Assembly: GCF_015709455.1 (NCBI RefSeq)
Contig: NZ_JADNQW010000002.1
Span: 1 to 64,000 of the forward strand
Length of the DNA: 64,000 nucleotides
DNA from: Methylosinus sp. H3A
Lineage (GTDB): Bacteria; Pseudomonadota; Alphaproteobacteria; Rhizobiales; Beijerinckiaceae
Direction of reading: 5' to 3'
Shown here: piece after piece, positions 4,630 to 53,764 of the stretch
Numbering within the stretch: position 1 is the first letter of the stretch
How the letters are laid out: each line of letters starts with the position of its first letter
Translations under genes and position numbers: made by a program
The notes under the pieces: generated by a model
What the model was told of the DNA's origin: nothing
Seen by the model: only the letters and a program-made list of their open reading frames with translations
Database searches by the model: none

Positions 4630-5924
4630 GGGACTGTCAGGAATCTTGTGTGCGGGGCCGGGTTTCCATCACGCCGCGACGAAGCGATCGTCGAACATGA
4701 TGGCGAATTGATTTTTCGCCTCGCACCATTCGCGCGGCGCCATTTTCCACTCCCCGGCGACTTGGCGCAAGACGAGATAGAGGAGCTTCATCGCCGCATC
4801 GTCAGTCGGAAAATGCCCTCTCGTCCGCACGGCGCGCCGCAGCTTCGCGTTCAAGGATTCTATGGCGTTCGTCGTGTAGATGATCCGCCGTACCGCGATC
4901 GGAAAGGCGAAAAACGGGATGACCTGCTCCCAATTGCGCCGCCAGCCCTGCGCGATCGACGGATATTTCTTGCCCCAATGGCCGCCGTCGAAGGCCTCCA
5001 ACGCCTCTTTGGCCGCCTCGGCGGTCGGGGCGCGATAGATCGTCTTCAGCGCGGCGGCGATCGCCTTGCGGTCCTTGTATGAGGCGAATTCCATCGAGTT
5101 TCGAATGAGATGCACGATGCAGGTCTGCACGGTCGTCTGCGGAAACACCGCATTGATCGCCTCCGGAAAGCCCTTCAGGCCGTCGACCACGGCGATCAGT
5201 ATGTCGCCGACGCCGCGGTTCTTCAGCTCGTTCATCACCCGAAGCCAGAATTTGGCGCCCTCCGAGGTCTCGATCCAAAGCCCCAGAATGTCCTTCGTTC
5301 CGTCCGGCGTGACGCCGAGCGCCACATAGACGGCCTTGTTGCGGACCAGGCCTTCGTCGCGGATTTTGACGCGCAGCGCGTCGAAGAAAACCAAGGGATA
5401 CATCGCCTCGAGCGGCCGGTTCTGCCATTCGGCGACGGTCTCCAGCACGGCGTCGGTGACTGTCGAGATCAGATCGGGCGAGACTTCCAGGCCGTAGAGC
5501 TCGAGCAAATGGCCCTGGATCTCGCGCACCGTCATGCCGCGCGCATACATCGACACGATTTTCTCGTCGAAGCCGGGAAAGCGGCGCTGATAGCGCGCGA
5601 TCAGCTTGGGATCGAAGCTCCCCTCCCGGTCCGCGGGACCCTGATGTCGATCTTCGACGTCTCGGTCAGCACGGTCTTCTTCGAATAGCCGTTGCGGTGG
5701 TTCGCCTTGCCCGCCGCCGCTTCGCTCTCGAGATGGTCGTCCATCTCCGCGTTCAGAACCCGTTCCGCCAGCGCCTTCTTCAGCTCATCGAACAAGCCAT
5801 CCTTGGAAAAAACCTCCTTCGGATCGCGTCCCGACAGCAATTGGTCCAATGTGCCCTTCTTGATCGCCATAGCCCGCCTCCTGCGGTTCTACTATGGCCC
5901 ACACACAAGATTCCTGACAGTCCC
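4630..5924 (-). mobile_element. IS256-family element, copy A, with 9-bp target duplication
   Basis: The ends are perfect inverted repeats beginning GGGACTGTCAGGAATC. The flanks carry a direct repeat CTGACGGTG (4621-4629 and 5925-5933), the 8-9 bp duplication expected for IS256. At 1295 bp it is two bases shorter than copies B and C. One missing C frameshifts the transposase and the other is just inside the right end. This copy has clean flanks, unlike B and C. Confidence 0.93.
4669..5870 (-). pseudogene. IS256 (mutator-type) transposase, copy A, frameshifted
   Basis: The sequence matches the 400-residue transposase of copies B and C except for one missing C in the codons for [11 protein letters not shown]. 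The N-terminal 80 residues ([20 protein letters not shown] onward) are therefore separated from the catalytic region, where the frame reads VPRTGRGAS and stops. The catalytic part keeps the mutator-type DDE blocks ([37 protein letters not shown]). It also differs by a serine for proline in HLIRNSMEF. The copy is inactive in cis but could be mobilised in trans. Confidence 0.9.
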
Positions 5925-13555: not shown

Positions 13556-14852
13556 GGGACTGTCAGGAATCTTGTGTGTGGGGCCATAGTAGAACCGCAG
13601 GAGGCGGGCTATGGCGATCAAGAAGGGCACATTGGACCAATTGCTGTCGGGACGCGATCCGAAGGAGGTTTTTTCCAAGGATGGCTTGTTCGATGAGCTG
13701 AAGAAGGCGCTGGCGGAACGGGTTCTGAACGCGGAGATGGACGACCATCTCGAGAGCGAAGCGGCGGCGGGCAAGGCGAACCACCGCAACGGCTATTCGA
13801 AGAAGACCGTGCTGACCGAGACGTCGAAGATCGACATCAGGGTCCCGCGGGACCGGGAGGGGAGCTTCGATCCCAAGCTGATCGCGCGCTATCAGCGCCG
13901 CTTTCCCGGCTTCGACGAGAAAATCGTGTCGATGTATGCGCGCGGCATGACGGTGCGCGAGATCCAGGGCCATTTGCTCGAGCTCTACGGCCTGGAAGTC
14001 TCGCCCGATCTGATCTCGACAGTCACCGACGCCGTGCTGGAGACCGTCGCCGAATGGCAGAACCGGCCGCTCGAGGCGATGTATCCCTTGGTTTTCTTCG
14101 ACGCGCTGCGCGTCAAAATCCGCGACGAAGGCCTGGTCCGCAACAAGGCCGTCTATGTGGCGCTCGGCGTCACGCCGGACGGAACGAAGGACATTCTGGG
14201 GCTTTGGATCGAGACCTCGGAGGGCGCCAAATTCTGGCTTCGGGTGATGAACGAGCTGAAGAACCGCGGCGTCGGCGACATACTGATCGCCGTGGTCGAC
14301 GGCCTGAAGGGCTTTCCGGAGGCGATCAATGCGGTGTTTCCGCAGACGACCGTGCAGACCTGCATCGTGCATCTCATTCGAAACCCGATGGAATTCGCCT
14401 CATACAAGGACCGCAAGGCGATCGCCGCCGCGCTGAAGACGATCTATCGCGCCCCGACCGCCGAGGCGGCCAAAGAGGCGTTGGAGGCCTTCGACGGCGG
14501 CCATTGGGGCAAGAAATATCCGTCGATCGCGCAGGGCTGGCGGCGCAATTGGGAGCAGGTCATCCCGTTTTTCGCCTTTCCGATCGCGGTACGGCGGATC
14601 ATCTACACGACGAACGCCATAGAATCCTTGAACGCGAAGCTGCGGCGCGCCGTGCGGACGAGAGGGCATTTTCCGACTGACGATGCGGCGATGAAGCTCC
14701 TCTATCTCGTCTTGCGCCAAGTCGCCGGGGAGTGGAAAATGGCGCCGCGCGAATGGTGCGAGGCGAAAAATCAATTCGCCATCATGTTCGACGATCGCTT
14801 CGTCGCGGCGTGATGGAAACCCGGCCCCGCACACAAGATTCCTGACAGTCCC
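13556..14852 (+). mobile_element. IS256-family element, copy B, intact
   Basis: This 1297-bp element has perfect inverted repeats GGGACTGTCAGGAATC and an uninterrupted transposase. The left flank is CCAAAGCG and the right flank TCAACCTG, so it has no target duplication of its own. The expected partner CCAAAGCG is found, inverted, next to copy C. It therefore looks like one boundary of an inversion. Confidence 0.93.
13611..14813 (+). CDS. IS256-family (mutator-type) transposase, copy B
   Basis: A full-length 400-residue transposase, normal for the family. Catalytic-domain landmarks are [13 protein letters not shown] (first Asp), [20 protein letters not shown] (second Asp, then [13 protein letters not shown]) and [20 protein letters not shown], which carries the catalytic Glu. 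The ATG follows AGGAGGCGGGCT in the conserved leader. Its translation is identical to copy C, so transposition or gene conversion was recent. It could supply transposase in trans for the frameshifted copies A and D. Confidence 0.95.
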
Positions 14853-17040: not shown

Positions 17041-18003
17041 TCACATCACGCTCGAAATAGTTCGCCCACAGTCCGCATCGATGCGGCTTGGCATGGTGGG
17101 AAGGGTAGGAGGCTCGGAATCTTGCACTGCGTCGCGGAAGATTGCGACGAGATCGAGAATCTGGCGCACTTGTTCCAAATGCTCTCCATAGCCGATGTTG
17201 AGCTGGACGATGCGGCTGCGTCCCGCCGCCAGGTTCAATGGACGCAGCCGCCCCGATGCGAGTTCGTCGCGAATGCAGTGCTCTGGAAGCCACGCGTAGC
17301 CCTGGCCATCGGCGACGAGGGCGACCGATGTCGTAAGGTGGCTGACCGTCCAGCGCTGACGTGAGCCGAGCCATCCGCTGTCCGCTCCCCGCAGGCCGGA
17401 GTCGCTCATTACGACCTGACGATGATCCTTGAGCAATTCATGCGTGAGCAGGCCGAGCTGATGCAGGGGATGGCCCGCGGCGGCCACACAGATGAAACGC
17501 ACCGAGAGCAGAGGCTCGGCGACGATACGGCCGGGAAGATAGCTCGCTATGCCGATCTGCGCGCGTCCTTCCTCGAAGGCTTCGCTCGCGCCCGACAATG
17601 CCGTTTCGCAAACCCGTACCGATAGCCTCGGGTAGAGAAGCGAATATTGGTGGAGTGCGTTCAAGAGAATCGGCTTGGGAAAAATAATATCGATTGCGGC
17701 CGTAATCTCGCCCTCGGAGCTAGGATCGAAACCCGAGCAGAAGTGCTCGATTTGCGTCGCATGGCCAATGAGCTCCCGTGCGCGAGGAAAAATCATTTCG
17801 CCGGTCTTGGTCAGGGTCGCCCGTCGTCCTTCGATCGCGAAGAGTTCTTGGCCCAGGCATTCCTCCATTTTGCGAACGGCGTGGCTGACCGCCGACTGCG
17901 TCTTGCTCAATCGTTCGGCCGCTTGATGAAAACTTCCGTGCCGTGCCGTGGCGACGAACACGCGCCATTGCTCGAGCGTGATTTTCGTCATCGCCTGTTT
18001 CAT
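17041..18003 (-). CDS. LysR-type transcriptional regulator
   Basis: A 320-residue LTTR. The N-terminal winged helix reads ITLEQWRVFVATARHGSFHQ, then AAERLSKTQSAVSHAVRKME. The C-terminal effector domain spans roughly residues 90-300. The start MKQAMTKI is chosen because GAGAGGAG lies eight bases upstream; an upstream in-frame ATG would add 16 Arg-rich residues without a ribosome site. The gene lies 135 bp downstream of the thioesterase gene on the same strand. It may be the last gene of the 18-25 kb operon or its pathway regulator with its own promoter. Confidence 0.88.
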   Translation of the reverse strand: MKQAMTKITLEQWRVFVATARHGSFHQAAERLSKTQSAVSHAVRKMEECLGQELFAIEGRRATLTKTGEMIFPRARELIGHATQIEHFCSGFDPSSEGEITAAIDIIFPKPILLNALHQYSLLYPRLSVRVCETALSGASEAFEEGRAQIGIASYLPGRIVAEPLLSVRFICVAAAGHPLHQLGLLTHELLKDHRQVVMSDSGLRGADSGWLGSRQRWTVSHLTTSVALVADGQGYAWLPEHCIRDELASGRLRPLNLAAGRSRIVQLNIGYGEHLEQVRQILDLVAIFRDAVQDSEPPTLPTMPSRIDADCGRTISSVM

Positions 18004-18138
18004 GTCGATACTCCTCTCACGCCGGCATCGAATTGGCGCTCTCGCGTTCACTCGACGACCTCGAACTGAAATATTTATGTCATCGTGATCGATCGGCTTT
18101 CAAAATCAGTGTGAGTAGAGACTCGAAATTTGGCGGCC

Positions 18139-18618
18139 TTACGACGCCGCGCGCTCGACAACACCGTTTGCGTCCGGAACGAGAATGGTCTGCCGCACTC
18201 GCGCCTTGGAAATCTGCGCCGTTGCGAAAGGCGTGTGTGCGCCACCGACGCCGACGCGTATGGCGGCGACCGAGGTGAAAATCATCCTGCGTCCTGCTCG
18301 GATCACGCTGGCTTGAAATTCCGCGATCGAATCGCGGGGCATCGGCGTCAGGATCGAGACCGCCATGTTCGTGCTGACCGCATATTCGTCAGGAGCCAGC
18401 AGAGGCAAAGTCGCGAGCATGCTGGTGACGTCCAGCATGGCGTAGGTCACGCCGCCATGCAGGCAGCGGCTCAGATTGTCGATGGCGGGGGTGACGACCA
18501 GTCGACAACGGCAGCGACCGGCTTCCTGCTCCAGCAGCTCCAGGCCGCAATAGCGCTGAAAGTCGTGCATGAGGAGCGCTCGGCTATGCAGGCGCGCATG
18601 ATCGGATATGTTGGTCAT
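18139..18618 (-). CDS. Hotdog-fold acyl-CoA thioesterase (PaaI-like), operon gene 6
   Basis: A 159-residue 4HBT/hotdog thioesterase. The motif LSRCLHGGVTYAMLDVTSML includes the HGG turn and the acidic residue (Asp) on the central helix that act in PaaI-type hydrolysis. The substrate is an acyl-CoA. The ATG overlaps the stop of the acyl-CoA dehydrogenase gene (ATGA), so the two are translationally coupled. As the last catalytic gene of a CoA-based operon, its inferred job is to release the free acid or to clear dead-end thioesters. Confidence 0.85.
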   Translation of the reverse strand: MTNISDHARLHSRALLMHDFQRYCGLELLEQEAGRCRCRLVVTPAIDNLSRCLHGGVTYAMLDVTSMLATLPLLAPDEYAVSTNMAVSILTPMPRDSIAEFQASVIRAGRRMIFTSVAAIRVGVGGAHTPFATAQISKARVRQTILVPDANGVVERAAS

Positions 18619-19700
18619 TCCGGTCTCCGTTCGAGTGAGCGAGCGATGATTTCGTTCATCACCTCGGTCGTGCCGCCGCCGATGGCGACGAGAGGGGCGT
18701 CGCGCAGGCTTCGCTCGGCGAGCGAAGGAGACACGCAGCCGGCCGCCCCGTGCAATCGAACCGCGATCTGCGCCGCGAATGCGAAGGCTGCGGTCGCCGC
18801 GTTCTTGGCCATCGCCACCTGGACTTCGCCGTCCTCGACGGTCGTCCGATCCACGAAATGACGGGCCATGGCGACGGCCGTGTGCAATTCGGCGAGAGTC
18901 TGGCGAACATGCGTCATGGCGATCAAAGGCGCGTTGCGAATGAGGCGGCTTCGGCTGTGCTTCAAAACGGCGGCGCTCACGACCTCGGCGGCGCTCGCCG
19001 CCGAGATCGCCAGATTGAGCCGCTCTCGCGTCAAGGCGCCGCGCAGGATTCGGCCGCTCCGGTCGGGGGCGGCGATCAGCCGCGCGCGGGCGTTCGCGAA
19101 GCGGATGGCCGCGAGTGGAAGGCAGCGCCAACCCGACGGCTCGAGAGGATATCCGATAATCTCCGCTTGCGGCTGCTCGACCAGGAAGAGGCCGAGGCCA
19201 TCGGGCGCACGTGCGCCGAGGACTAGGCAGTGGGCGCGCGCTCCATTGCAGATGAAGCGTTTCTCGCCGGTGATCCGCCACGCGCCGTCGGCTCCGAGCG
19301 CGGCGCGTGCGTCGAGCGCGGTCAGATCGGAACCGGCGTCCGGCTCGGTGAGGGCGAGGGCGATGATGCGCGCGCCCGCCAGCACATCGGCGATGACGGA
19401 TCCGAACGCCTCCGCTCCCGCCGATGCGAGGATCGACAGGCTGACGAAGTGCGAGCAGAGCCCTACCGCCAGCCCCTGCGATCCGCCGCGGGTGACTTCT
19501 TCGAGCAACATTCGCATCCGGGTCTGATGAATAGGCGGAACAGGCCCCGGAACGTCGCCGAGCGAGAGCAGGCGAGCCGCTCCCGCTTCGGCGTGCAGGC
19601 TCGCCGGATAGGCCCCGGCGCGTTCCCAGGCGTCGATATTCGGTTCGACACGCTCCGCGACGAAGGCGCGAAGCGCGGTCTGAAACATTTCGTCGTCCAT
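18615..19700 (-). CDS. Acyl-CoA dehydrogenase family protein, operon gene 5
   Basis: A 361-residue flavoprotein of the acyl-CoA dehydrogenase family, somewhat shorter than the usual 380. Blocks seen are ALALTEPDAGSDLTALDARA (FAD-contacting loop), WRITGEKRFICNGARA, and the C-terminal RLHGAAGCVSPSLAERSLRD with IGGGTTEVMNEIIARSL. Such enzymes make alpha,beta-unsaturated acyl-CoA and pass electrons to ETF, although some in biosynthetic clusters act as oxygenases or reductases. The start MDDEMFQ overlaps the monooxygenase stop (TGATG). A dehydrogenase is an odd partner for an HMG-CoA synthase/hydratase pair unless the branched acyl-CoA is further oxidised. Confidence 0.87.
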   Translation of the reverse strand: MDDEMFQTALRAFVAERVEPNIDAWERAGAYPASLHAEAGAARLLSLGDVPGPVPPIHQTRMRMLLEEVTRGGSQGLAVGLCSHFVSLSILASAGAEAFGSVIADVLAGARIIALALTEPDAGSDLTALDARAALGADGAWRITGEKRFICNGARAHCLVLGARAPDGLGLFLVEQPQAEIIGYPLEPSGWRCLPLAAIRFANARARLIAAPDRSGRILRGALTRERLNLAISAASAAEVVSAAVLKHSRSRLIRNAPLIAMTHVRQTLAELHTAVAMARHFVDRTTVEDGEVQVAMAKNAATAAFAFAAQIAVRLHGAAGCVSPSLAERSLRDAPLVAIGGGTTEVMNEIIARSLERRPE

Positions 19701-20824
19701 CAGAAAACCGTGGTTTCGGCGAGGCTTCTGAATTTCGTCAGCCGGTCCCGTAGCGCGTCGTTCGTCACCGAGCCCTCCTCGCGAAAATAAAACAGATCGG
19801 TCAGATCGCTCATGACCTCGAGCATCTCGCGCGAACGCAGCCGCACCCTGCGTGAATAGCGGCGCAGAGCGCTCGTGATGTCCGCGTCGCAATTGCAGAC
19901 GAGCGATTGAGCGAGAGCGAAGCCGTTCTCGAGGCCGAGCGTGAAGCCGTAACCGAGCGTGGGCAGCATGGCGTGCGCGCTGTCTCCGAGGAGCGTCACC
20001 CGGCCGCGGTGCCAGTTCTCGATATGCTTTATCGCGTGCAGGCGATTGTGGAGCATCGATTCGGGCGGCGTCGCGTCGACCATCGCCGGAAGAGGGTCGG
20101 CGATGTCGGCGATCGCGGCGCGAATTCCGTTCTTGTCGAGCAGCGGCCGATCGAGATGCCGATAGGCGTAGAACCAGTAACGCAGAGATCGGCTCTCATC
20201 GAGCGGATAGGTCACCACCCGAGCGCTGTCGTAGGTGAAGATCTGGCATCGGTCGCCGAGCAGCGCCGGATGCGCGAATTCGACGATGCCGCGGCAGGCC
20301 GCGACGCCCGTGTCGGCGACGATCGCCTCCGGGGCGACGGCGCTGCGCACCCGGGAGAAAACGCCATCGGCTCCGACGACGACATCGAAGCGACGTGAGA
20401 GCCCATCGGTGAAGTCGACCGTCACGCCATTCTCGTCCTGCGAGATCGACTCGCATCCGGCGTCGGCGGTGATGGCGTGAGCGTCGAGAGCGTCGCGCAG
20501 CATGCCGAACAACCGCTTGCGCGGGAACATCATCGCCGGCGCGGGAAACTCGAATCCTTCGAGCCGCACCGGCTGGCTGTGGATCAGTTTGCCGCGCCGG
20601 TCGAGCGTGTCGAGAAACTCGATCGGCTGACCGGCCGCCAGCAGACGATCGTCCCCGAACATGAAGCGCAGCACCTGCACGCCTTGCGGCCAGACATAGA
20701 TTCCCGAACCCGTGTCGCGCGGCCCGTCGCCGCGCTCGTATACCTCCGCTCCGACCCCGAAGCGTTTCAGGAGCAAGGCGAGGGCGAGGCCGTTGAGCCC
20801 CGCGCCGATGATTCCGATTTTCAT
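19700..20824 (-). CDS. FAD-dependent group A monooxygenase, operon gene 4
   Basis: A 374-residue flavoprotein hydroxylase of the PHBH/UbiH/salicylate hydroxylase type. The Rossmann fingerprint is GIIGAGLNGLALALLLKRFG. The DG motif is VVVGADGVFSRVRSAV and the GD motif is VTLLGDSAHAMLPTLGYGF. These bind FAD and NAD(P)H for hydroxylation with O2. The substrate is unknown. The start ATG overlaps the asparagine synthase stop by four bases. The enzyme implies an aromatic or activated carbon substrate, or an N-/C-hydroxylation step, in the pathway. Confidence 0.88.
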   Translation of the reverse strand: MKIGIIGAGLNGLALALLLKRFGVGAEVYERGDGPRDTGSGIYVWPQGVQVLRFMFGDDRLLAAGQPIEFLDTLDRRGKLIHSQPVRLEGFEFPAPAMMFPRKRLFGMLRDALDAHAITADAGCESISQDENGVTVDFTDGLSRRFDVVVGADGVFSRVRSAVAPEAIVADTGVAACRGIVEFAHPALLGDRCQIFTYDSARVVTYPLDESRSLRYWFYAYRHLDRPLLDKNGIRAAIADIADPLPAMVDATPPESMLHNRLHAIKHIENWHRGRVTLLGDSAHAMLPTLGYGFTLGLENGFALAQSLVCNCDADITSALRRYSRRVRLRSREMLEVMSDLTDLFYFREEGSVTNDALRDRLTKFRSLAETTVF

Positions 20825-22782
20825 GCCATCTCCTCCATGACGAGATTTTCCGTGGCGCCGCTTGTTTCACTGTTCATGCGGAAGCGCCGCTGCATCAGAC
20901 AGAGGCTGGCGATTTCCATGAACATCGGATCGAGCAGCGCCTGCTGGTCCGGCGGCAGGCCCGGCAATTCCGCGAGGGCCCGACGCACCAGTTTGGCGTC
21001 GAAGAAGGGTAGATCGAACAACGCGTCGCCGTGCAGCGCGTCGCGAACGAGCTGCGAGAGCCGGTCGTCATGACGCAGCATCGCCGGGGGCGCCCGGAAA
21101 TAGTGCTTCTTGCGCTTGTAGAGCGCCTCGGGGAGGAACGGACGCATCGCCTCGCGGAAGATATGCTTTTCCGTGCCTCCTTTGATCTTGAGCCAGACCG
21201 GAAGCCTACAGGCGTATTCGGCGACATGATGGTCCAGCAACGGCACTCGCCCTTCGACGCTGTGCGCCATCTCCATGCGATCGCCGAGCGTCGTCAAAAC
21301 GAAATTGGGTAGAAAGCTCTTGGCCCAAAGATACATCGAGCGATGCACCGGATCGCGGCCGGCGAGCCGGTGATGCGCCGTTCCGTTGTAGAAGCGTCGA
21401 TAGGGTCCGATCCCCGACCAGCGCCGCCTCGTCTCGCCGCCGTAGAGTGCTTGTAGAGCGCCGAACCAGCTCGACTGATTGTCGATCCAGGATACGCCGT
21501 GCCCGAGTTGCGCCGTCATCCAGGTCGCATCCGACGGAAGGCGTTCGCGCGCATAGCCGGCCTCGCTCGCCTTCAGCTTCGAGCGCAGCTCCTCGACGAC
21601 GTCGCAATCTTGATGCTGCGCGTTGTAGAGCAGCATGTCCCGCCGAAAATGCGGGTAACCGGCGAAAATCTCGTCGGAGCCCTCGCCGGTGAGCACGACT
21701 TTGAAACCGGCGTCCCGCACCGCTCGGCTGAGAAGATATTTGGCGACGCCATGCGCGTTGAAGAACGGCGTTTCATTGTGCCACAGCGCGTCGTCGAAAT
21801 TGTCGGCGAGATCATTCTGCGTCACGGGAATCGAGCAGAAGCGCGCGCCGGCGTGAGCCGCGGCCTGCTCGGCGAAGCGCCGTTCGTCATGGGCCTCGGA
21901 GTCGACGAAGGAGAGGTTATAGGCGTCGAGCGGAGCGCCGCTCAGATGCGTCGCGCATCCGAGCATCGCCGAGGAATCGATTCCGCCGCTGAGATAGATG
22001 GCGACCGGCACATCCGACCGCAAGCGCAAGCGCACCGCTTCGAGAATTTTCTCCCGCAGTCCGGCGACCGCCTCCGCTTCGTCGAAACGATCGTTGTCGA
22101 GCGAATCCGCGGAACTGAAATCGAGATCCCAATAGGTCTGCTCGCGCAATCCGCTCGGCGTCGCGGTGACGAAACGCCCGGGCGCGACGCTGCGGACTTT
22201 TTTGAACAGCGTCTGGTTCGAGAGATAGAAGCCGCGTGAGACATAGGCGTCCTCGTCCCAGATGGCCGGCACGCCGGCCGCCAGCAGCGCCTTGATCTCG
22301 GAGCCGATATAGATCGCTCCCTCGTGTTCGGCGATGAACAGCGGCTTGATCCCGAAGCGATCGCGCATGGCGACGAGTTGGCGTTCGTTCGCGTCGTAGA
22401 GCACGAGCGCGAACTCTCCGCGCAGGCGCTCGAGGCCCGCCGTGCCGAATTCGCGATAGAGATGCAGCGCGATCTCGCTGTCGCTTTCTGTGCGGAAAAC
22501 GCAGCCGCGGGCGCGAAGCTCGTCGCGTATGCGCTCGAAATCGTAAAACTCGCCATTGACGATCAGATGGATCGAGCCATCCGCGGAGGCGATCGGCTGC
22601 CGTCCGTTGCCGAGGCCTATGATGCTGAGCCGCGCGTGTCCGAATGCGACGTTCCCTCGCGGATCGATCCAGACGTCTCGTTCGTCTGGTCCGCGATGGC
22701 GAATGGCGGCCAGACCATCGAGAATTTTCGCGCGCGCCACAGGACGCGGACCGCTGTCGTAAATTGCCAAAAAACCACACAT
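20821..22782 (-). CDS. Asparagine synthase (glutamine-hydrolysing) family amidotransferase, operon gene 3
   Basis: A 653-residue AsnB-type protein. Starting at MCGFLAIYD puts Cys2 as the N-terminal nucleophile, and AGAGGAA lies about ten bases upstream. The class II glutaminase domain covers about 1-210 (HRGPDERD, NGEFYDFERIRDEL, FGIKPLF). The synthetase domain has the PP-loop YLSGGIDSSAML and LTGEGSDEIFAGYPHFRRD, and is complete to the end. Housekeeping AsnB makes asparagine. In biosynthetic clusters this family amidates carboxylic acids such as malonyl units. The embedding in a CoA-thioester operon favours the second role, by inference. It follows the hydratase gene after 48 bp. Confidence 0.9.
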   Translation of the reverse strand: MCGFLAIYDSGPRPVARAKILDGLAAIRHRGPDERDVWIDPRGNVAFGHARLSIIGLGNGRQPIASADGSIHLIVNGEFYDFERIRDELRARGCVFRTESDSEIALHLYREFGTAGLERLRGEFALVLYDANERQLVAMRDRFGIKPLFIAEHEGAIYIGSEIKALLAAGVPAIWDEDAYVSRGFYLSNQTLFKKVRSVAPGRFVTATPSGLREQTYWDLDFSSADSLDNDRFDEAEAVAGLREKILEAVRLRLRSDVPVAIYLSGGIDSSAMLGCATHLSGAPLDAYNLSFVDSEAHDERRFAEQAAAHAGARFCSIPVTQNDLADNFDDALWHNETPFFNAHGVAKYLLSRAVRDAGFKVVLTGEGSDEIFAGYPHFRRDMLLYNAQHQDCDVVEELRSKLKASEAGYARERLPSDATWMTAQLGHGVSWIDNQSSWFGALQALYGGETRRRWSGIGPYRRFYNGTAHHRLAGRDPVHRSMYLWAKSFLPNFVLTTLGDRMEMAHSVEGRVPLLDHHVAEYACRLPVWLKIKGGTEKHIFREAMRPFLPEALYKRKKHYFRAPPAMLRHDDRLSQLVRDALHGDALFDLPFFDAKLVRRALAELPGLPPDQQALLDPMFMEIASLCLMQRRFRMNSETSGATENLVMEEMA

Positions 22783-22830
22783 GATCCTATTCCTCTCCGG
22801 TGCGAAACGCATTCGAGGGAACGAAAAAAA

Positions 22831-23646
22831 TCAATCTGTCGCCGCCGGCGCCGCGAGCCAGGCGGGCGGCCGCCTGCCCAGGAACGCCGCCATGCCTTCA
22901 TGCGCCTCGGATGTGGTGCGGAGCCTTGCGATCAACCGGCGATTGGCGATCGTCTCCGCGCCGAGATTGTCTCGCGCCTGCAAGCGATCGAGGAGCGCCT
23001 TGCATTCGCGTAGCGCGACCGGACCACAGGATGCGATGGAGTCGAGGAGCGCTCTCGTTCGCGCCTCGAGCGCGGCCGCGTCGAGCACTTCGTGGACGAG
23101 GCCGTCCTCGAGAGCCTGGACCGCGTCGAAAGCCTCCGCCGCGAGGAAACGGCGCCGCGTCCGGCGCAGCCCGATGGCGCGGACCACATATGGGCTGATC
23201 ACGGCCGGCACGAGTCCGAGCAGGGGCTCGCTGAAACGGAAGGTCGCGCCCGTCTCGGCGAGGACGACGTCGGCGCAGCACAGCAGGCCGATCCCGCCGC
23301 CATAAGCGCAGCCCTGGGCTTTGGCCACGAGCGGAGCGGGGAGACCGGCGAGCGCGCCGAGCGCGGCGTCGAGACGCTCCGCGTCGAGGATGTTTTCGTC
23401 ATCCGACAATTCGGCGGCGCGCCGCATCCAAGCAAGGTCGGCGCCTGCGCAAAAATGCCTGCCTTCGGCGGTCAGGAGGACGGCGCGAAGCGCGCCGTCG
23501 CTGGCGAGCTCGGCGCAACCCTTTGCGATCGCATCGAGCATCGCCTCGTCGAGGGCGTTGCCGCGCTCCGGCCGCGCGAGGCGCAATTCGCCGATCACGG
23601 AGCCGTTGCGCGTGGTCGAGCGCGTGACGTGGACGGGCTGCGTCAT
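22831..23646 (-). CDS. Enoyl-CoA hydratase family, methylglutaconyl-CoA hydratase-like, operon gene 2
   Basis: A 271-residue crotonase-fold protein. The oxyanion-hole segments are RHFCAGADLAWMRRAAEL and AQGCAYGGGIGLLCCADVV. The block FSEPLLGLVPAVISPYVVRA and the following FDAVQALEDGLVHEV closely resemble bacterial LiuC-type methylglutaconyl-CoA hydratases, which keep one of the two crotonase glutamates (here Glu140) while the other is Gly. LiuC enzymes interconvert HMG-CoA and 3-methylglutaconyl-CoA. Placed four bases after an HMG-CoA synthase gene, it most likely dehydrates HMG-CoA. That direction is inferred, as known from the myxobacterial alternative isovaleryl-CoA route. Confidence 0.85.
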   Translation of the reverse strand: MTQPVHVTRSTTRNGSVIGELRLARPERGNALDEAMLDAIAKGCAELASDGALRAVLLTAEGRHFCAGADLAWMRRAAELSDDENILDAERLDAALGALAGLPAPLVAKAQGCAYGGGIGLLCCADVVLAETGATFRFSEPLLGLVPAVISPYVVRAIGLRRTRRRFLAAEAFDAVQALEDGLVHEVLDAAALEARTRALLDSIASCGPVALRECKALLDRLQARDNLGAETIANRRLIARLRTTSEAHEGMAAFLGRRPPAWLAAPAATD

Positions 23647-23650
23647 CGCT

Positions 23651-24841
23651 TTACGCCACGGCGTTGAGCTGGAGGTTGCGGGTGGCCGCGTAGACGCGGC
23701 GCTGCGCCTCGATCGCGGCCAGACGATAGCGTCCCGCGGTCTCCTCCGGGCAGACCCGATCTTCCGCCGATTTGGTGGAATTGTAGAACCAGGCCACATA
23801 GGTCGCGTAATCGATTTCGCGCCGCCCAGCGAGCAGAGCGCGATGGGCGCGCGTGCGCAAATGGCCGCGGTAGCCCTTGCGCACCGTCGCGGCGAAGAAC
23901 TCCCCGACCGAGCCGCTGCCATAGCTGAACAGGCCGATGTTGCGGCCGCCGAGATCCTCGGCGCAATTATCGAGCAAGGAGGCCAGGGCGATGTAGAGCG
24001 AGGCCGCATAGGTGTTGCCGATCTGGCGGCCGTAGGTCTGGCTCTCGGCGTAGCTCGTTTCGTCGAGATGGTCGGCGTCCGCGCCGGCCGCTTCACGCAG
24101 GGCGACGAAGGCCTTTTTCGACATTTTGGTGAAGGGCTGGTGGAAGCAGAGCTTTTCGATCGCGGCCAGCGGCAGGCCGTCCTTGCGACGAAAATCCGCA
24201 TAGGCTTCGCGCAAGGAGCGCAGATAGACGTCGATCGACAGCTTGCCGTCGACATAGGCGGCTTCCCGATGGTTCGGGCGCCAGAAATCCATGACGTCGA
24301 AGCTGAACAGGCCGCTCTGCGGATGAATCTCGACCAGGCTCGGGTTTTTGGCGATCACCATCGCGACGGCGCCCGCCCCTTGGGTGCATTCGCCTTCCGA
24401 ATTGCGCTCGTAGCGCGCGATGTCGGAGGCGATCACCAGAACTTTTTCGCTCGGCCGGTGACGCACGAGGTCGCACGCGAATTGGAGGCCCGCGGTGGCG
24501 CTGTAGCAGGCCTGTTTGAATTCGACGACGCGGCAGTTCGGGTTGAGCCCGAGCACGCCGTGAACGAACATCCCCGCCGATTTCGACTGATCGACGCCGC
24601 TCTCGGTGGCGAAGATCACCGTGCTGATGCGTTCGCGAACGTCATCGGTCAGAACCGGCGCGACGGCGTTGGCCGCCATGCTCACGATGTCTTCGTCCGG
24701 CGAGGGGACCGCCATTTGTTCCTGGCCGATCCCTTGGAGGTATTTGGCGGGATCGATGCCGTGCCGGTGGGCGAGATCCTCCAGCGGGTAGAAGAAACCT
24801 GGCGAGTAGATCGAGATGTCGTCGATTCCTACCGTTGTCAT
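23651..24841 (-). CDS. Bacterial-type hydroxymethylglutaryl-CoA synthase, operon gene 1
   Basis: A 396-residue thiolase-fold enzyme. Numbered from MTTVGIDD, the catalytic set is Glu80 (FATESGVDQSKS), Cys112 (FKQACYSATAGLQ) and His234 (CFHQPFTKMSKKA). These sit one residue from Glu79/Cys111/His233 of Staphylococcus MvaS, so the active site is complete. LFSYGSGSVGEFFAATV near the C-terminus is also typical. It condenses acetyl-CoA with acetoacetyl-CoA or an analogous beta-ketoacyl substrate. Alphaproteobacteria of this kind normally make isoprenoids by the MEP route and no other mevalonate gene is in the window, so a specialised-metabolism role, as with PksG-type beta-branching enzymes, is likely. 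The upstream ATG (MKGRD) is a less likely start. Confidence 0.9.
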   Translation of the reverse strand: MTTVGIDDISIYSPGFFYPLEDLAHRHGIDPAKYLQGIGQEQMAVPSPDEDIVSMAANAVAPVLTDDVRERISTVIFATESGVDQSKSAGMFVHGVLGLNPNCRVVEFKQACYSATAGLQFACDLVRHRPSEKVLVIASDIARYERNSEGECTQGAGAVAMVIAKNPSLVEIHPQSGLFSFDVMDFWRPNHREAAYVDGKLSIDVYLRSLREAYADFRRKDGLPLAAIEKLCFHQPFTKMSKKAFVALREAAGADADHLDETSYAESQTYGRQIGNTYAASLYIALASLLDNCAEDLGGRNIGLFSYGSGSVGEFFAATVRKGYRGHLRTRAHRALLAGRREIDYATYVAWFYNSTKSAEDRVCPEETAGRYRLAAIEAQRRVYAATRNLQLNAVA

Positions 24842-25291
24842 GTCTCTGCCCTTCATCTGTTCGAACGATCTGACGCGAGCTCGATGAGCGCGCTACCAAG
24901 CTGAAGCTTAAATCGTTTTGCGCGTCGTTTTTAATAAAACTGTCAAAAACCGAATTTCTATTCGGTCACCCCAATTTATGCGGGCATCCAAAAAGGAACA
25001 CGGCGGCGCGCTGATCCATTCACTGCTTCAGCTTGCCCAGCGACTTCGCTCTTATCGCACGTTGATATCGTTAATAGGTAATCAAATTTTTTCACTATTG
25101 TACACGATATTTATACTGCCCGGATTTCCGTGGGAATTGACGTTCTTTTCATAAAAAAACCATAATATGTTAACTCGCTAGTCTGATCACCGACTTAGAA
25201 GAATATTACAATTTTGTCTTCCAAAACGAGAATAATCGATCTGCGACTTCGTGGGCGGGGCCCTGAAACGTTTCGGGCTTCGAAGGAGGCG
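24842..25291. promoter_or_regulatory. AT-rich upstream region of the HMG-CoA synthase operon
   Basis: This 450-bp gap separates the RND gene stop from the operon start. It is much richer in A+T than its neighbours, mainly 25040-25200, and has no convincing gene. It should hold the operon promoter. On the reverse strand a TTGACA hexamer (24938-24943) lies next to a perfect inverted repeat. The base shift may mark a transfer boundary. Confidence 0.45.
24950..24965. promoter_or_regulatory. Inverted repeat, candidate operator of the HMG-CoA synthase operon
   Basis: CCGAATTTCTATTCGG is a perfect 6-bp inverted repeat with a 4-bp spacer, about 110 bp upstream of the first gene and beside a TTGACA hexamer on the reverse strand. 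It could bind the LysR regulator encoded at the other end of the operon. That pairing is only inferred. Confidence 0.4.
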
Positions 25292-28200
25292 CTACGCCGC
25301 CGACGCCGACCGCTCGTCCTCGAGCGGCCGTCCACGGTGGTCCTGAGCGAGAAGCGAATAGATCGTCGGCAGCACAAGCAGCGTGAACAGCGTGCCGACC
25401 AGCATGCCGGCCACCACCACGACGCCGATGGCGAAGCGGCTCGCACCGCCGGCTCCGGCGGCGAAGATCAGCGGAAAAAGTCCTGCGACCATCGCCGCCG
25501 TCGTCATCAGGATCGGGCGTAGCCGGATGCGCGCCGCTTCGACGACGGCGGCGTGGCGGTCGAGACCGTCACGCCGCTGCAACTCGTTCGCGAAAGCGGT
25601 CATCAATATGCCGTGCTTGGAGATGAGGCCGACGAGCGTGATGAGGCCGATCTGCGTGAAGATGTTCAGCGTGGCATAGCCGAGCCAAAGCGGCAGGAGC
25701 GCCCCGAATACGGAGAGGGGCACGCTGACCAGGATCACGAGCGGGTCACGAAAGCTCTCGAACTGCGCCGCCAGCACGAGGAAGATCACCACGAGCGCGA
25801 GGCCAAAGGCGACGGTGAGCCGATCGCCTTCGGTGACATATTGGCGAGACTCTCCGAGCCATGCCGTTGCAAGACCCACGGGCAGGTCGCGCGCCTGCCG
25901 CCGTAGGAACGTCACGGCCTGCCCCATGGTTACGCCCGGCGCCAGGACGGCGGAAATGGTCGCCGCGTTCATCTGATCGTACTGTCCGAGCTGGTTCGGT
26001 TCGGCGCGTTCGGACGCCTCGACGATCGTGTCGAGAGGGAGCAGGGCGCCGGACGTCGATCGCACATGGAAACGGCCCAGGCCCGCCGCGTCGGCGCGGA
26101 ACCGGCGTTCGACCTGCGGGATCACGTCATACGACCGTCCACGTAACTCGAAGCGGTTGACGTATTTTTCTCCGACGAGAGTGGCCAGCGTGGTGGCGAC
26201 GTCCTCCATCGTCAACCCGAGGTTGTTCGCCTTGGAGCGGTCGATCGTCAATGTCGAGCCCGGCTTGTTCCACGACAAATCCGTGTCGACCACCGCGAAC
26301 AGGCCGCTCGCTCGCGCCGTTTCGGCGATATGTCCGCTCACTTCGTACAATCGGTCGAACTCGCTCGGTCCAAACAGCACCATCTGCACGGGCAGGCCAG
26401 GCGTGGTGGGCAGAGCCGGCAGCAGAAAGGCGAACACGCTCAGCCCGGGATTTTGCGCTCCATCTGCTTGCAGCTCCGCCATGATGGTCGCCGCGCTGCG
26501 TTCGCGTTTGCTCCAGGTTGCGAGGTTGACGCCCGCGAAAACGCCATGCGGACCGGGTTCGGTCTGGCTCGAGCCGCTCAACACCCAGGTCGTGTCCGTT
26601 TCCGGCAGTCGTCGGAACGCGGCTTCGAGCCGGGAGGCGTAGCGCTCGGTGTAGTCGAGATTGGCGTAGCGGGGACCCTTGGCGACCTCCATCACCGTAC
26701 CCTGATCCTCGCTCGGCGCGAATTCGCGCTTCACGCCGAGATAGAGCGCGGCCGTGCCGGCGACCGTCGCGAGGCAGACGGCGATCATCAGCGGCCGCAC
26801 GCGGAGCGTCGCTTTCAGCAATGCGCCGTAGGCGTCGGCGAGGCGCGCAAATCCATGCTCGATGGCCGCCGTGATCCGGCCTTCGGATATCTGCGGCCGT
26901 AGGAGCAGCGAACTCATCATGGGCGACACGCAGAGCGCAACCACGCCCGAAACGACGACCGCCCCCGCCAAAGTGAAGGCGAATTCGCGAAACAGCGATC
27001 CGGTCAACCCCTGCATCAGGCCGATCGGAGCGTAGACCGCGGCGAGCGTGATCGTCATCGCGATCACCGGGCCGACGACTTCGCGCGCGCCCCGCAGCGA
27101 CGCTTCGAAAGGTCCGGCCCCGTGTTCGATATGCCGATGAATGTTTTCGACGACGACGATGGCGTCGTCGACGACGAGGCCGATCGCCAGCACCATGGCC
27201 AGCAGCGTCAGGAGATTGAGGCTGAAGCCGGCCGCCAGCATCAGCGTCGCTGCGCCCACTAGCGACAAGGGAATTGTGACGATGGGAATGAGCACGGCTC
27301 TTCCAGAGCCGAGGGAGAGGAAGATCACGATGACGACGATGATCGCAGCTTCCACCAGCGTGTTTTCGACTTCGCGCAGCGCGGCCTCGACGAAGCGCGC
27401 CACATCGAACACGTTCTGGATATCCATGCCGACGGGCTTCGAGCGTTCGAGCTGTGGTAGCAGGGCCGTCACGTCGCGCACGATTTCGAGCGGGTTCGCC
27501 GCGGGCGCGCCGTTGACGGCGATCACCACGGCGGGGCGGCCGTTGATCAGCGCGGATTGTTCGTAGTTCTGCTCGCCGATGTCGATGACGGCGACGTCCT
27601 CGAGACGCACCAGTCCGCCGGCGCCGGCCTTGATCACCAATTGCCGGAACGATTCGGGATCCTGTGTGTCCGTATTGGCCGCGACTGCGACGGCGGTGAG
27701 CGGCCCTTTGATTTGGCCGGCGGCGATCTGCACATTGTTGCGTGACAGGGCTCGGGAGACTTCGGCCGCGGTGATGTCGCGTCCGGCGAGCTTGTCGGGG
27801 TCGAGCCATATGCGCATCGCCAGATTGCGGCCGCCCATGATCTGGGCCGAGGCCACGCCGTTGACGGATGTCAGCAGCGGTTGGGCCGCGCGCACGGCGT
27901 AGTCCGTCATGATCGGAGCGGGCAGCGTCTCGCTCATCAGCGCGATATACATCACCGCCGTGGGATCGTCCGTTATCTTGTCGATGATCGGATCGAAAGC
28001 CTCTCGCGGCAGCAGATATTTGACCTGTTGCACCTTGGCCATGATCTCGGCCAGCGTACGATCGGGATTGGCCTCAAGCTTGAGGCGGGCCTTGATCAGA
28101 CTCTTTCCCTCGGTCGAGATCGACGTCATATATTCGATCCCGTCGGCGGTCGAGATCGCTTGCGCGAGGGGCGTCGTCACGAAGCCCTGCATCAGTCGCT

Positions 28201-28366
28201 GCGAGGCCCCGGGATAATTGGTTTCGACCGTGATCGCCGCGCTCTGCAGCTTGGGATATTGCCGGATCGGCAGGGAGAGCAGCGACCATACGCCTGCGAG
28301 CAGGATGAGGAGACTGACGACCGTGGCGAGAACCGGCCTTCTCACGAAGATGTCGGTGAAAACCAC
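25292..28366 (-). CDS. RND multidrug efflux permease (HAE1/AcrB type), quinone-linked module
   Basis: A 1024-residue inner-membrane RND pump. The N-terminal TM1 reads FVRRPVLATVVSLLILLAGV, followed by a large periplasmic loop. The TM4 motif LAIGLVVDDAIVVVENIHRH keeps both proton-relay aspartates. TM10 has TLVGLISKHGILMTAFANEL with the conserved lysine. It pumps hydrophobic compounds to a TolC-like channel using proton motive force. The membrane fusion protein gene is 12 bp upstream. No outer membrane factor gene is in the module, so a channel from elsewhere must be used. Confidence 0.93.
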   Translation of the reverse strand: MVFTDIFVRRPVLATVVSLLILLAGVWSLLSLPIRQYPKLQSAAITVETNYPGASQRLMQGFVTTPLAQAISTADGIEYMTSISTEGKSLIKARLKLEANPDRTLAEIMAKVQQVKYLLPREAFDPIIDKITDDPTAVMYIALMSETLPAPIMTDYAVRAAQPLLTSVNGVASAQIMGGRNLAMRIWLDPDKLAGRDITAAEVSRALSRNNVQIAAGQIKGPLTAVAVAANTDTQDPESFRQLVIKAGAGGLVRLEDVAVIDIGEQNYEQSALINGRPAVVIAVNGAPAANPLEIVRDVTALLPQLERSKPVGMDIQNVFDVARFVEAALREVENTLVEAAIIVVIVIFLSLGSGRAVLIPIVTIPLSLVGAATLMLAAGFSLNLLTLLAMVLAIGLVVDDAIVVVENIHRHIEHGAGPFEASLRGAREVVGPVIAMTITLAAVYAPIGLMQGLTGSLFREFAFTLAGAVVVSGVVALCVSPMMSSLLLRPQISEGRITAAIEHGFARLADAYGALLKATLRVRPLMIAVCLATVAGTAALYLGVKREFAPSEDQGTVMEVAKGPRYANLDYTERYASRLEAAFRRLPETDTTWVLSGSSQTEPGPHGVFAGVNLATWSKRERSAATIMAELQADGAQNPGLSVFAFLLPALPTTPGLPVQMVLFGPSEFDRLYEVSGHIAETARASGLFAVVDTDLSWNKPGSTLTIDRSKANNLGLTMEDVATTLATLVGEKYVNRFELRGRSYDVIPQVERRFRADAAGLGRFHVRSTSGALLPLDTIVEASERAEPNQLGQYDQMNAATISAVLAPGVTMGQAVTFLRRQARDLPVGLATAWLGESRQYVTEGDRLTVAFGLALVVIFLVLAAQFESFRDPLVILVSVPLSVFGALLPLWLGYATLNIFTQIGLITLVGLISKHGILMTAFANELQRRDGLDRHAAVVEAARIRLRPILMTTAAMVAGLFPLIFAAGAGGASRFAIGVVVVAGMLVGTLFTLLVLPTIYSLLAQDHRGRPLEDERSASAA

Positions 28367-28378
28367 GGCGCCCTCGCT

Positions 28379-29572
28379 CTAATGCAAAGATTTGGAATGC
28401 GGAGATTTGGCGGCGAGCGACGCGCCGTCCGACGGTCGCGGCGAAACAGACCTGACCCTCAGGCCAGGCGACAGCCGCAACTGGCCGCTGGTTACGACGA
28501 TGTCGCCGTCCGTGAGGCCGGAGAGGATCGCGACGCGACTGTCGACTCGCCGCCCGGTCTCGACGACCACTTGCTCGACGCGTCCCTCGCCGTCGGCGCC
28601 GATGTCGCGCACGATGAAAGCCGTCTTGGTCGACGCGTTCGCCAAGACGGCGGTCTCCGGCACGGTGACGACGCCGTTTTCCGGCGTGAGGCTCAGCGTC
28701 GCCGTCGCATAGAGTCCCGGCCGCATTTGCCGGTCGTGATTGGCGATCCTGGCGCGGAGCGCGACATTGCGCGTGCCGCGATCGACCTGCGGCTCGATCG
28801 TCTCGAGCTTGGCGACGAAGCGCCGTTTGGCGACGGCGTCCGTGGCGATCTCCACTGTTTGTCCGACGACGAGGTCGCCCAGATAGCGTTGCGGCACGGC
28901 AAAATCGATAAAGAGCTCGTCCAGATCGGTCAGCGTGGCGATCGCGTCGCCAGGATTGAGATATTGTCCGAGATCGACGTTCCGCACGCCGAGAATGCCG
29001 GAGAACGGCGCGCGCACGGTCCGTTGCGCGATCGCGGCTTCGCTCGCGGCGACCATGGCGCTCGCGCGGTCGAAGGCGGCCTGACGATTGTCGACCTCGG
29101 CCTGGGAGGACGCGTTATGCCGATTCAATTCCGTCGAACGCTGCAATTGCAACCGGGCCACGGTCTCCTCGGCGCGATTTTGCGCCAGCTCCGCCTGTTG
29201 CGGCTTGCTGTATAAGTCGATGGCCGGCATGTCGGCGGCGATCCGTTCGCCGCCGTGAAAATGGATAGCGACGACGCGTCCGCCGACCTCAGGCGTCAAC
29301 GTCACCTGCCGGACCGCCCGCAGCGACCCCACGGCCGTGACGCTGCGCGGCAATGGGCCGGCCGACGCGGCGGCGGTCTCTACCGTGACGGCCGGCGAAG
29401 ACGGGGCGAGGGCCCCTTCTCGCAGCGACGCGGGCGCCTTGCCGCCGGCATAGACAGCCGCCGCGAGCGCGAGACCGGCCGCCGTGAGTGACCCAAATCG
29501 TAAACCTCCCCGCATGACGCTAGAGCCTCCATCCGCAGGAAGTTTCGGTCCCTGAGCGCCTGAAAGCGTCAT
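28379..29572 (-). CDS. RND efflux periplasmic adaptor (membrane fusion protein)
   Basis: A 397-residue HlyD/AcrA-type adaptor. After a leader with a hydrophobic stretch ([19 protein letters not shown]) come the lipoyl half-motif ([19 protein letters not shown]), a coiled-coil hairpin (about 120-190), the second half-motif [20 protein letters not shown], and the beta-barrel block [14 protein letters not shown] (here RQMRPGLY). The ATG overlaps the wrbA stop by four bases. It bridges the pump and the outer-membrane channel. A shorter start at MRGGLRFG, 19 codons in, would give a more standard signal anchor. Confidence 0.9.
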
Positions 29573-30168
29573 GAGGCCAGCTTCGCCGCAATCTCGGCGA
29601 CGAGCCGCCCCTGGAAGCGCGCGCCGGCAAGTTCGTTCTCCGTCGGCTGGCGCTTGCCGTCGCCGCCAGTGATCGTGGTGGCGCCGTAGGGACTGCCGCC
29701 CGTCACTTGGTCTGTCGCCAATTGCCCTTGGAAGCTGTACGGCAAGCCAACTACCACCATGCCGAGATGCAGAAGATTGGTAACGATCGAGAACAAGGTC
29801 GTCTCCTGGCCGCCATGCTGGCTTGCCGTGGAGGTGAACGCCGAACCCACTTTTCCGTTGAGCGCGCCGCGCGCCCACAGGCCGCCGGTCCGATCCAGAA
29901 AGGTCGCCATCTGCGCCCCGATCCGGCCATAGCGCGTTCCGCAGCCGATGATGATCGCATCGAACAGTTCGAGCTCTTCCACCGTGGCGATCGGCGCTTT
30001 CTGGTCGATCTTGTATCCGGAGTCGCGAGCGACGGCTTCCGGAACCGTCTCAGGCGCGCGTCTCAAGGAGGCCTCCGCTCCAAAGTCGCGAGCGCCCGCC
30101 GCGATGGCCTCCGCCAACTTCTCGATATGGCCGTAGGTCGAATAATAGAGAACGAGAACTTTCGGCAT
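29569..30168 (-). CDS. wrbA: NAD(P)H:quinone oxidoreductase, WrbA type
   Basis: A 199-residue flavodoxin-fold protein. The FMN phosphate loop is [38 protein letters not shown] and [19 protein letters not shown] are hallmark WrbA segments that bind FMN and the quinone. It reduces quinones by two electrons to hydroquinones, avoiding radicals. It is the first gene of wrbA-MFP-RND, so the module should sense, reduce and export quinone-like or aromatic electrophiles. Confidence 0.92.
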
Positions 30169-38992: not shown

Positions 38993-38999
38993 GGACTCC

Positions 39000-53740: not shown

Positions 53741-53764
53741 CGATGGAATCCCCTCGGCGAAACG

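What the first reader, a model, noticed from the sequence alone, without database searches (positions are those of the whole stretch)
18139..24841. Six-gene operon built on HMG-CoA: candidate undescribed biosynthetic pathway
Six genes overlap or nearly touch in one direction: an HMG-CoA synthase with full Glu/Cys/His active site, a LiuC-type hydratase, an AsnB amidotransferase, a FAD monooxygenase, an acyl-CoA dehydrogenase and a hotdog thioesterase. HMG-CoA synthase plus LiuC is known to give 3-methylglutaconyl-CoA (alternative isovaleryl-CoA route of myxobacteria, and PksG/PksH-type beta-branching). Here no decarboxylase, polyketide synthase or carrier protein follows; instead amidation, hydroxylation and dehydrogenation genes do. 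A small amide such as a 3-methylglutaconyl- or glutarimide-like compound is one inference. I know no characterised cluster with this gene set.
Basis: partly seen in the sequence, partly recalled or inferred. Interest (0 to 1): 0.82.

Follow-up and report, generated by a model that had tools for sequence, protein, structure and literature searches.

The report
HMG-CoA pathway to a quinone-like pyridine
A relative of methane-eating bacteria carries a set of genes, found here and there in other bacteria, that probably turns a common cell building block into a small nitrogen-ring compound that behaves like a quinone; we found no description of such a route.

Summary
The six-gene minus-strand operon is real, intact and tightly packed. 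It is also conserved: 14 AsnB-bearing loci in Methylosinus, Methylorubrum, Methylobacterium, Pseudomonas, Shewanella, Photobacterium, Vibrio and one unnamed relative. It is not primary metabolism: the genome has no HMG-CoA reductase match, has Dxr of the MEP route, and has two other full asparagine-synthase matches. The cluster is wider than reported, with an RND pump, LysR genes and a WrbA quinone reductase. In 13 of 14 loci a quinone- or hydroquinone-handling enzyme of one of three families sits nearby; 0 of 23 control HMGS loci, mostly Actinomycetota, have one. The window's WrbA is the only one in its 5.38-Mb genome. The monooxygenase is closest in fold to urate hydroxylase HpxO and tropone monooxygenase TrlE. 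Best reading: HMG-CoA to 3-methylglutaconyl-CoA, amidated by the AsnB-like enzyme, closed to 2,6-dihydroxy-4-methylpyridine, hydroxylated to a trihydroxypyridine/azaquinone. Quinone-like cyclic amide: likely. Exact structure: about 0.4. The dehydrogenase step stays unexplained.

The parts
23651..24856 (-). HMG-CoA synthase (TIGR01835); presumed to make HMG-CoA; start may be 24841
   Evidence: groups with the HMGS of the other clusters on one side of a branch with support 96/95
22831..23646 (-). enoyl-CoA hydratase of LiuC/AtuE-like type; presumed dehydration of HMG-CoA to 3-methylglutaconyl-CoA
20821..22782 (-). AsnB-like glutamine amidotransferase starting MCG; presumed amidation of the free carboxylate
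19700..20824 (-). class A FAD monooxygenase, HpxO/TrlE-like; presumed ring hydroxylation
18615..19700 (-). acyl-CoA dehydrogenase; catalytic Glu apparently in the LCAD/isovaleryl position; role unknown
18139..18618 (-). hotdog (PaaI-like) thioesterase; release or cyclisation presumed
17041..18051 (-). LysR regulator; a homologue is found in 13 of 14 loci
25292..28366 (-). RND efflux permease; homologue in 8 of 14 loci
28379..29497 (-). RND periplasmic adaptor (HlyD-like); start approximate; homologue in 8 of 14 loci
29569..30168 (-). WrbA NAD(P)H:quinone oxidoreductase, the only TIGR01755 match in the genome
30212..31186 (+). second LysR regulator, divergent from wrbA; M. nodulans pMNOD02 also has a LysR-type gene divergent from wrbA (homology of the two not tested)
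24857..25291 (-). gap of 435 bases between the RND gene and HMGS, probable promoter region; a simple scan showed no shared inverted repeat

Best explanation
This is a dedicated, patchily distributed pathway for a small redox-active N-heterocycle built from HMG-CoA without a polyketide synthase or peptide synthetase. HMGS makes HMG-CoA and the LiuC-like enzyme dehydrates it to 3-methylglutaconyl-CoA. The AsnB-like enzyme turns the free carboxylate into an amide. The amide closes on the thioester, alone or helped by the hotdog thioesterase, giving 4-methylglutaconimide, which is the tautomer of 2,6-dihydroxy-4-methylpyridine. The FAD monooxygenase hydroxylates that ring to 2,3,6-trihydroxy-4-methylpyridine, which interconverts with its azaquinone. 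WrbA (an AzoR-like enzyme and/or a glutathionyl-hydroquinone reductase in other lineages) keeps the producer safe from the quinone form, the RND pump exports it and LysR proteins regulate it. Shown by sequence: the gene set, intact reading frames, presumed active-site residues, conservation, company of quinone enzymes, absence of HMG-CoA reductase and of carrier genes on the contig. Inferred: every reaction, the order, and the structure. The acyl-CoA dehydrogenase step is open: oxidation of the CoA-bound chain, or TdaE-like oxygenation. My sub-estimates: specialised pathway 0.9; amidated HMG-CoA-derived unit 0.75; quinone-like product 0.65; this exact ring 0.4.
Confidence: 0.42

Rival explanations
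1. An unoxidised amide or imide: the pathway stops at a 3-methylglutaconamide or a glutarimide-like compound. The monooxygenase and dehydrogenase make minor modifications.
For: AsnB-like enzyme directly after HMGS and LiuC in the operon; the Shewanella locus has a degenerate monooxygenase.
Against: The closest solved relatives of the monooxygenase act on aromatic or enolic rings, and quinone-handling enzymes accompany 13 of 14 loci.
Confidence: 0.17
2. The acyl-CoA dehydrogenase is an oxygenase like TdaE. It oxidises and cleaves the CoA ester, and with the monooxygenase and thioesterase-like protein gives a different oxidised small ring, for example a hydroxylated five-membered lactam or methylmaleimide-type electrophile.
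For: Tropone pathways hold a TdaE acyl-CoA-dehydrogenase-like dioxygenase and a thioesterase-like TdaD (PMC8283759), and the monooxygenase here is as close in fold to TrlE as to HpxO. Electrophile detoxification would also suit glutathione-using enzymes.
Against: The dehydrogenase keeps a Glu (E227 in P0005 numbering, 10 of 10 rows) aligned with ordinary dehydrogenases, and the fold rows shown are mostly classical acyl-CoA dehydrogenases. In that paper TdaD processed neither substrate tried. No TdaE sequence was compared.
Confidence: 0.2
3. A catabolic operon for branched acyl-CoAs (leucine, terpenoid or similar) that happens to hold these families.
For: LiuC, acyl-CoA dehydrogenase and thioesterase families occur in catabolism; G043 keeps the core without HMGS.
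Against: HMGS condenses and AsnB-like amidotransferases build; an RND pump, patchy distribution (3 of 199 relatives, own included; 3 of 398 Pseudomonas, centre included) and plasmid carriage fit a specialised product.
Confidence: 0.06
4. Primary metabolism: HMGS for mevalonate and AsnB for asparagine.
For: Family names only.
Against: No HMG-CoA reductase match in a genome rated 100% complete, Dxr present, two further full AsnB matches with higher scores.
Confidence: 0.01

Closest known systems
Piericidin pyridone formation (PieD amidotransferase, PieC cyclase, PieE FAD hydroxylase)
   Same: Amidotransferase makes an amide, ring closes to a pyridone, FAD monooxygenase hydroxylates the ring (PMC9112059, passages).
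   Different: The chain, a beta,delta-diketo acid, comes from a modular PKS; here it would be HMG-CoA-derived and close on a thioester. No carrier domain on this contig.
Karnamicin cluster (KnmC asparagine synthase, KnmB1/B2, KnmD, KnmA4)
   Same: Holds an asparagine synthase, acyl-CoA dehydrogenase, thioesterase and an HpxO-like pyridine hydroxylase; unstable trihydroxypyridine core (PMC9838390, passages).
   Different: Its pyridine comes from a PKS-NRPS, and KnmC acts in a later transamination step, not in ring closure, as far as the passages tell; no HMGS or LiuC in the gene list seen.
Tropone/tropolone tailoring (TdaE, TdaD, TrlE)
   Same: Acyl-CoA-dehydrogenase-like flavoenzyme, thioesterase-like protein and TrlE-type monooxygenase (PMC8283759, passages; PDB 8rqh).
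   Different: Carbon ring from phenylacetate catabolism; amidation and HMGS are not part of it as I know it.
Nicotine pyridine pathway (2,6-dihydroxypyridine 3-hydroxylase)
   Same: Same predicted reaction on the unmethylated ring; product oxidises to a blue dimer (PMC6122326, PMC3891541, passages).
   Different: Catabolic; 21% identical over 348 aligned residues in the fold comparison; the ring is not built.
HMGS/ECH beta-branching (PksG/PksH) and alternative isovaleryl-CoA pathway (AibA/AibB)
   Same: HMGS followed by a crotonase (recalled).
   Different: No carrier protein on the contig; the one CoA_trans match lies on another contig.

Membership tests
HMG-CoA synthase (TIGR01835) | score over the curated cut-off | tested here: met
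   476.4 bits against 360.35
HMG-CoA synthase (TIGR01835) | Glu/Cys/His active site | tested here: met
   E85, C117, H239 invariant in 12 of 12; roles recalled
Mevalonate pathway | HMG-CoA reductase in the genome | tested here: not met
   PF00368: 0 matches; Dxr present
Polyketide beta-branching cassette | carrier protein in the cluster | tested here: not met
   0 of 22 PP-binding matches on contig C2
Alternative isovaleryl-CoA pathway | AibA/AibB pair (CoA_trans family, recalled) beside HMGS and LiuC | tested here: not met
   single CoA_trans match, on contig C5
3-methylglutaconyl-CoA hydratase (LiuC) | equivalog score | tested here: inconclusive
   related equivalog 209.7 bits against 426; ECH_1 met
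Glutamine-dependent AsnB family | N-terminal Cys nucleophile and TIGR01536 score | tested here: met
   421 against 267.1 bits; an MCG start, found by searching for that string, in 12 of 12 full rows read plus one partial; row L003 failed by a frame slip of my script
Class A flavin monooxygenase | fold | tested here: met
Flavin hydroxylase of N-heterocycles (HpxO, NicC, DHPH type) | closer to these than to other class A enzymes | tested here: inconclusive
   HpxO ties with TrlE; phenol hydroxylases rank above NicC and DHPH
Flavin hydroxylase of N-heterocycles (HpxO, NicC, DHPH type) | activity on a hydroxypyridine | not testable with these tools
   needs an assay
TdaE-type flavin dioxygenase | TdaE-specific active-site residues | not tested
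   no TdaE sequence at hand; the paper says classical dehydrogenases lack them
Piericidin-type hydroxypyridine pathway | amidotransferase plus FAD ring hydroxylase | tested here: met
   families only
Piericidin-type hydroxypyridine pathway | PKS scaffold | tested here: not met
   no carrier domain on the contig

The most novel reading that the evidence does not exclude
HMG-CoA is the direct carbon skeleton of an unknown class of bacterial 4-methyl-azaquinone metabolites, made by six enzymes with no carrier-bound steps, carried by relatives of methanotrophs, pseudomonads and vibrios, with lineage-specific quinone reductases as self-protection and a variant that feeds the same four-enzyme core from another acyl-CoA.
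Probability: 0.35. Interest if true: 0.78.

Novelty: new variant of a known kind. Interest (0 to 1): 0.62.

Why it matters
HMG-CoA is known (recalled) as the mevalonate precursor and as a source of beta-branches. A carrier-free route from it to a redox-active pyridine would add a precursor to natural product chemistry, explain an HMGS in a genome without mevalonate, and give a signature (HMGS-LiuC-AsnB-FMO-ACAD-TE) that searches built on carrier-based enzymes might pass over. It predicts exact masses and a self-protection gene, so it can be tested quickly.

Tried and rejected
Primary metabolism (mevalonate, asparagine) was tested and rejected. Beta-branching and the alternative isovaleryl-CoA route were tested and not supported. 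A shared operator was sought in 450 bases upstream of HMGS in 12 loci with a simple inverted-repeat scan; I saw none in common. The 36%-identical monooxygenase in G433 lies in a 20-kb stretch with no match to the other five queries, so it was not counted as a cluster. Of 11 plasmid records with an AsnB match only M. nodulans (72.6%) was followed; the ten others (cyanobacteria 43-45%, Sinorhizobium 35-36%) were not looked into. Of the three Pseudomonas genomes, the surroundings of two (L051, L052) were not read. The PLP-enzyme gene at window 39000-40043 was compared with those beside the G043 core and beside Xenorhabdus HMGS: 41% and 28% identity; I read that as ordinary family likeness and left it out. 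The idea that L042 adds its ring to alanine, as in mimosine, rests only on a PLP enzyme and an ATP-grasp gene there and was not pursued.

Literature: ten searches of the open PMC library showed no paper on this gene set in the listings, which were cut (25 of 92; 8 of 18; 15 of 51); two searches returned nothing. I saw passages of six papers (PMC8283759, PMC9112059, PMC6122326, PMC3891541, PMC9838390, PMC11964084) and only the listing of PMC9636800 (caprazamycin 3-methylglutaryl unit). Subscription papers are not held, so 'not described' is limited to this.

Absence from a structural list: no TdaE entry appeared among the 50 rows; that shows nothing about membership.
Full report
WHAT IS THERE. 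The window is positions 1-64000 of contig C2 of a 5.38-Mb genome whose HMGS is 95% identical to that of Methylosinus sp. Ce-a6; the genome that I take to be Ce-a6 is listed as of the same genus (G004). Six minus-strand genes run from HMGS at 24856 to a hotdog thioesterase ending at 18139. All are open and the spacings are +4, +48, -4, -1 and -4 bases. Curated models name HMGS (TIGR01835) and the AsnB family (TIGR01536) over their cut-offs; the other four are above Pfam cut-offs for enoyl-CoA hydratase, FAD monooxygenase, acyl-CoA dehydrogenase and 4HBT thioesterase.

NOT PRIMARY METABOLISM. The genome has no HMG-CoA reductase match, has Dxr of the MEP route, and has two other full-length TIGR01536 matches scoring higher than this one (501 and 499 against 421 bits). 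None of the 22 phosphopantetheine carrier matches lies on this contig, and the only CoA_trans match (the family of the AibA/AibB decarboxylase, recalled) lies on another contig.

CONSERVATION. A scan of the species genomes for close HMGS relatives gave 36 loci. Eleven have AsnB beside HMGS (L003-L007, L010-L015), two have HMGS and LiuC only (Xenorhabdus, Photorhabdus), 23 have neither. With the window, Methylobacterium nodulans plasmid pMNOD02 and genome G043, 14 loci carry AsnB. Twelve of 14 hold all six families within the stretch seen, counting the divergent Shewanella monooxygenase. L015 ends inside AsnB, but a 49%-identical monooxygenase begins near the start of another contig of that genome. 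G043 lacks HMGS and LiuC in the locus, and its genome gave no HMGS match. LiuC is inside the operon in 8 loci and displaced within about 10 kb in 5, where it is about 40% identical. In a tree of 38 HMGS rows the 13 cluster rows and the two Xenorhabdus/Photorhabdus rows stand on one side of a branch with support 96/95; the latter two lie inside that set (97/93 and 95/91), which suggests that they come from such a cluster and lost or never kept the rest.

The distribution is patchy: the monooxygenase at E up to 1e-60 is in 3 of 199 relatives, own genome included, in 2 of 398 genomes of the phylum, own genome included, the other being a lone gene, and in 3 of 398 Pseudomonas genomes, one of which was the chosen centre.

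THE WIDER CLUSTER. Beside the core lie LysR (13 of 14), an RND permease and adaptor (8 of 14 each), a DsbA-like protein (9 of 14), and quinone-handling enzymes in 13 of 14: WrbA in the window, L003, L004, M. nodulans and L012-L015; an AzoR-like protein plus a glutathionyl-hydroquinone-reductase-type transferase in L006, L007, L010, L011; the latter alone in L005 (the queries came from the window and L006). The window's WrbA is over two curated cut-offs (319.9 against 141 and 302.6 against 132.5 bits). The L006 AzoR-like protein matches FMN-dependent azoreductase models below cut-off (96.4 against 188). The L006 transferase finds YqjG (3r3e) and a glutathionyl hydroquinone reductase (4uss) in the PDB. 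The 23 control HMGS loci (396,250 bases) have no match to any of these queries at E 1e-8, but 17 of them are Actinomycetota, one Bacillota and five Pseudomonadota, so the control is weak. The window's WrbA is the only TIGR01755 match in its genome. Three families with one kind of job, in Alphaproteobacteria, Vibrionaceae, Pseudomonas and Shewanella, point to a product that cycles between quinone and hydroquinone.

MECHANISM. The simplest route that I see with an amidotransferase and a ring hydroxylase acting on 3-methylglutaconyl-CoA is closure of its terminal amide to 2,6-dihydroxy-4-methylpyridine, then hydroxylation. Piericidin gives the logic (amidotransferase, closure, FAD hydroxylase; PMC9112059). 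Karnamicin gives a pyridine hydroxylase whose closest relative is HpxO, and an unstable trihydroxypyridine; its cluster also holds an asparagine synthase, an acyl-CoA dehydrogenase and a thioesterase, but its ring comes from a PKS-NRPS and its authors did not find the HpxO residues in their enzyme (PMC9838390). Nicotine breakdown shows the unmethylated 2,3,6-trihydroxypyridine oxidising to a blue dimer (PMC6122326, PMC3891541). The dehydrogenase is unexplained. G043, which keeps AsnB-FMO-ACAD-TE with other partners, suggests that these four work as a unit, so the dehydrogenase may act on a CoA ester after or around amidation. TdaE, a dehydrogenase-like dioxygenase of tropone biosynthesis, is a precedent for oxygen chemistry by this fold (PMC8283759), but its defining residues were not compared.

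VERDICT. Observation confirmed; interpretation improved. A dedicated pathway with an HMG-CoA-derived, amidated unit is well supported by gene content, not by chemistry. A quinone-like product is likely. The exact azaquinone is a testable guess.

Noticed in passing
L042 9689-17972: G043 has AsnB-FMO-ACAD-TE without HMGS or LiuC, followed by a MATE-like transporter (by eye), a PLP enzyme (PALP) and an ATP-grasp gene: a variant of the core with another feed and possibly an amino-acid-linked product.
   Followed up: partly
L008 240-2213; L009 9995-11962: Xenorhabdus and Photorhabdus keep an HMGS-LiuC pair from the same HMGS group with no AsnB in the stretch seen; the best monooxygenase in the Xenorhabdus genome is 27% identical and Photorhabdus has none at E 1e-20.
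   Followed up: partly
L005 13212-14342: The Shewanella monooxygenase in an otherwise full cluster has lost FAD-site residues, so it may be inactive or changed in role.
   Followed up: no
L012-L015, AsnB: The SGGID string of the synthetase domain, present in the other AsnB rows read, was not found in these four rows.
   Followed up: no
L043 and L044: The cluster lies on plasmid pMNOD02 of Methylobacterium nodulans, with an IS110-like transposase gene between the thioesterase and LysR genes.
   Followed up: partly
window 13611-14813 and 59798-61000: Two transposase ORFs of the same length and same opening residues, on opposite strands (the first is Mutator family by Pfam); a shorter similar ORF is at 4669-5556.
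   Followed up: no
window 38021-40043: A 323-aa ORF without Pfam match directly before a PALP-family PLP enzyme, next to an EamA transporter: perhaps another small pathway.
   Followed up: no
window 50579-55078: A second RND efflux permease (PF00873) with an upstream ORF at 53765-55078, unrelated to the finding.
   Followed up: no
window 8571-12977: A 1468-aa ORF with glycosyltransferase group 1 domains and DUF4214.
   Followed up: no
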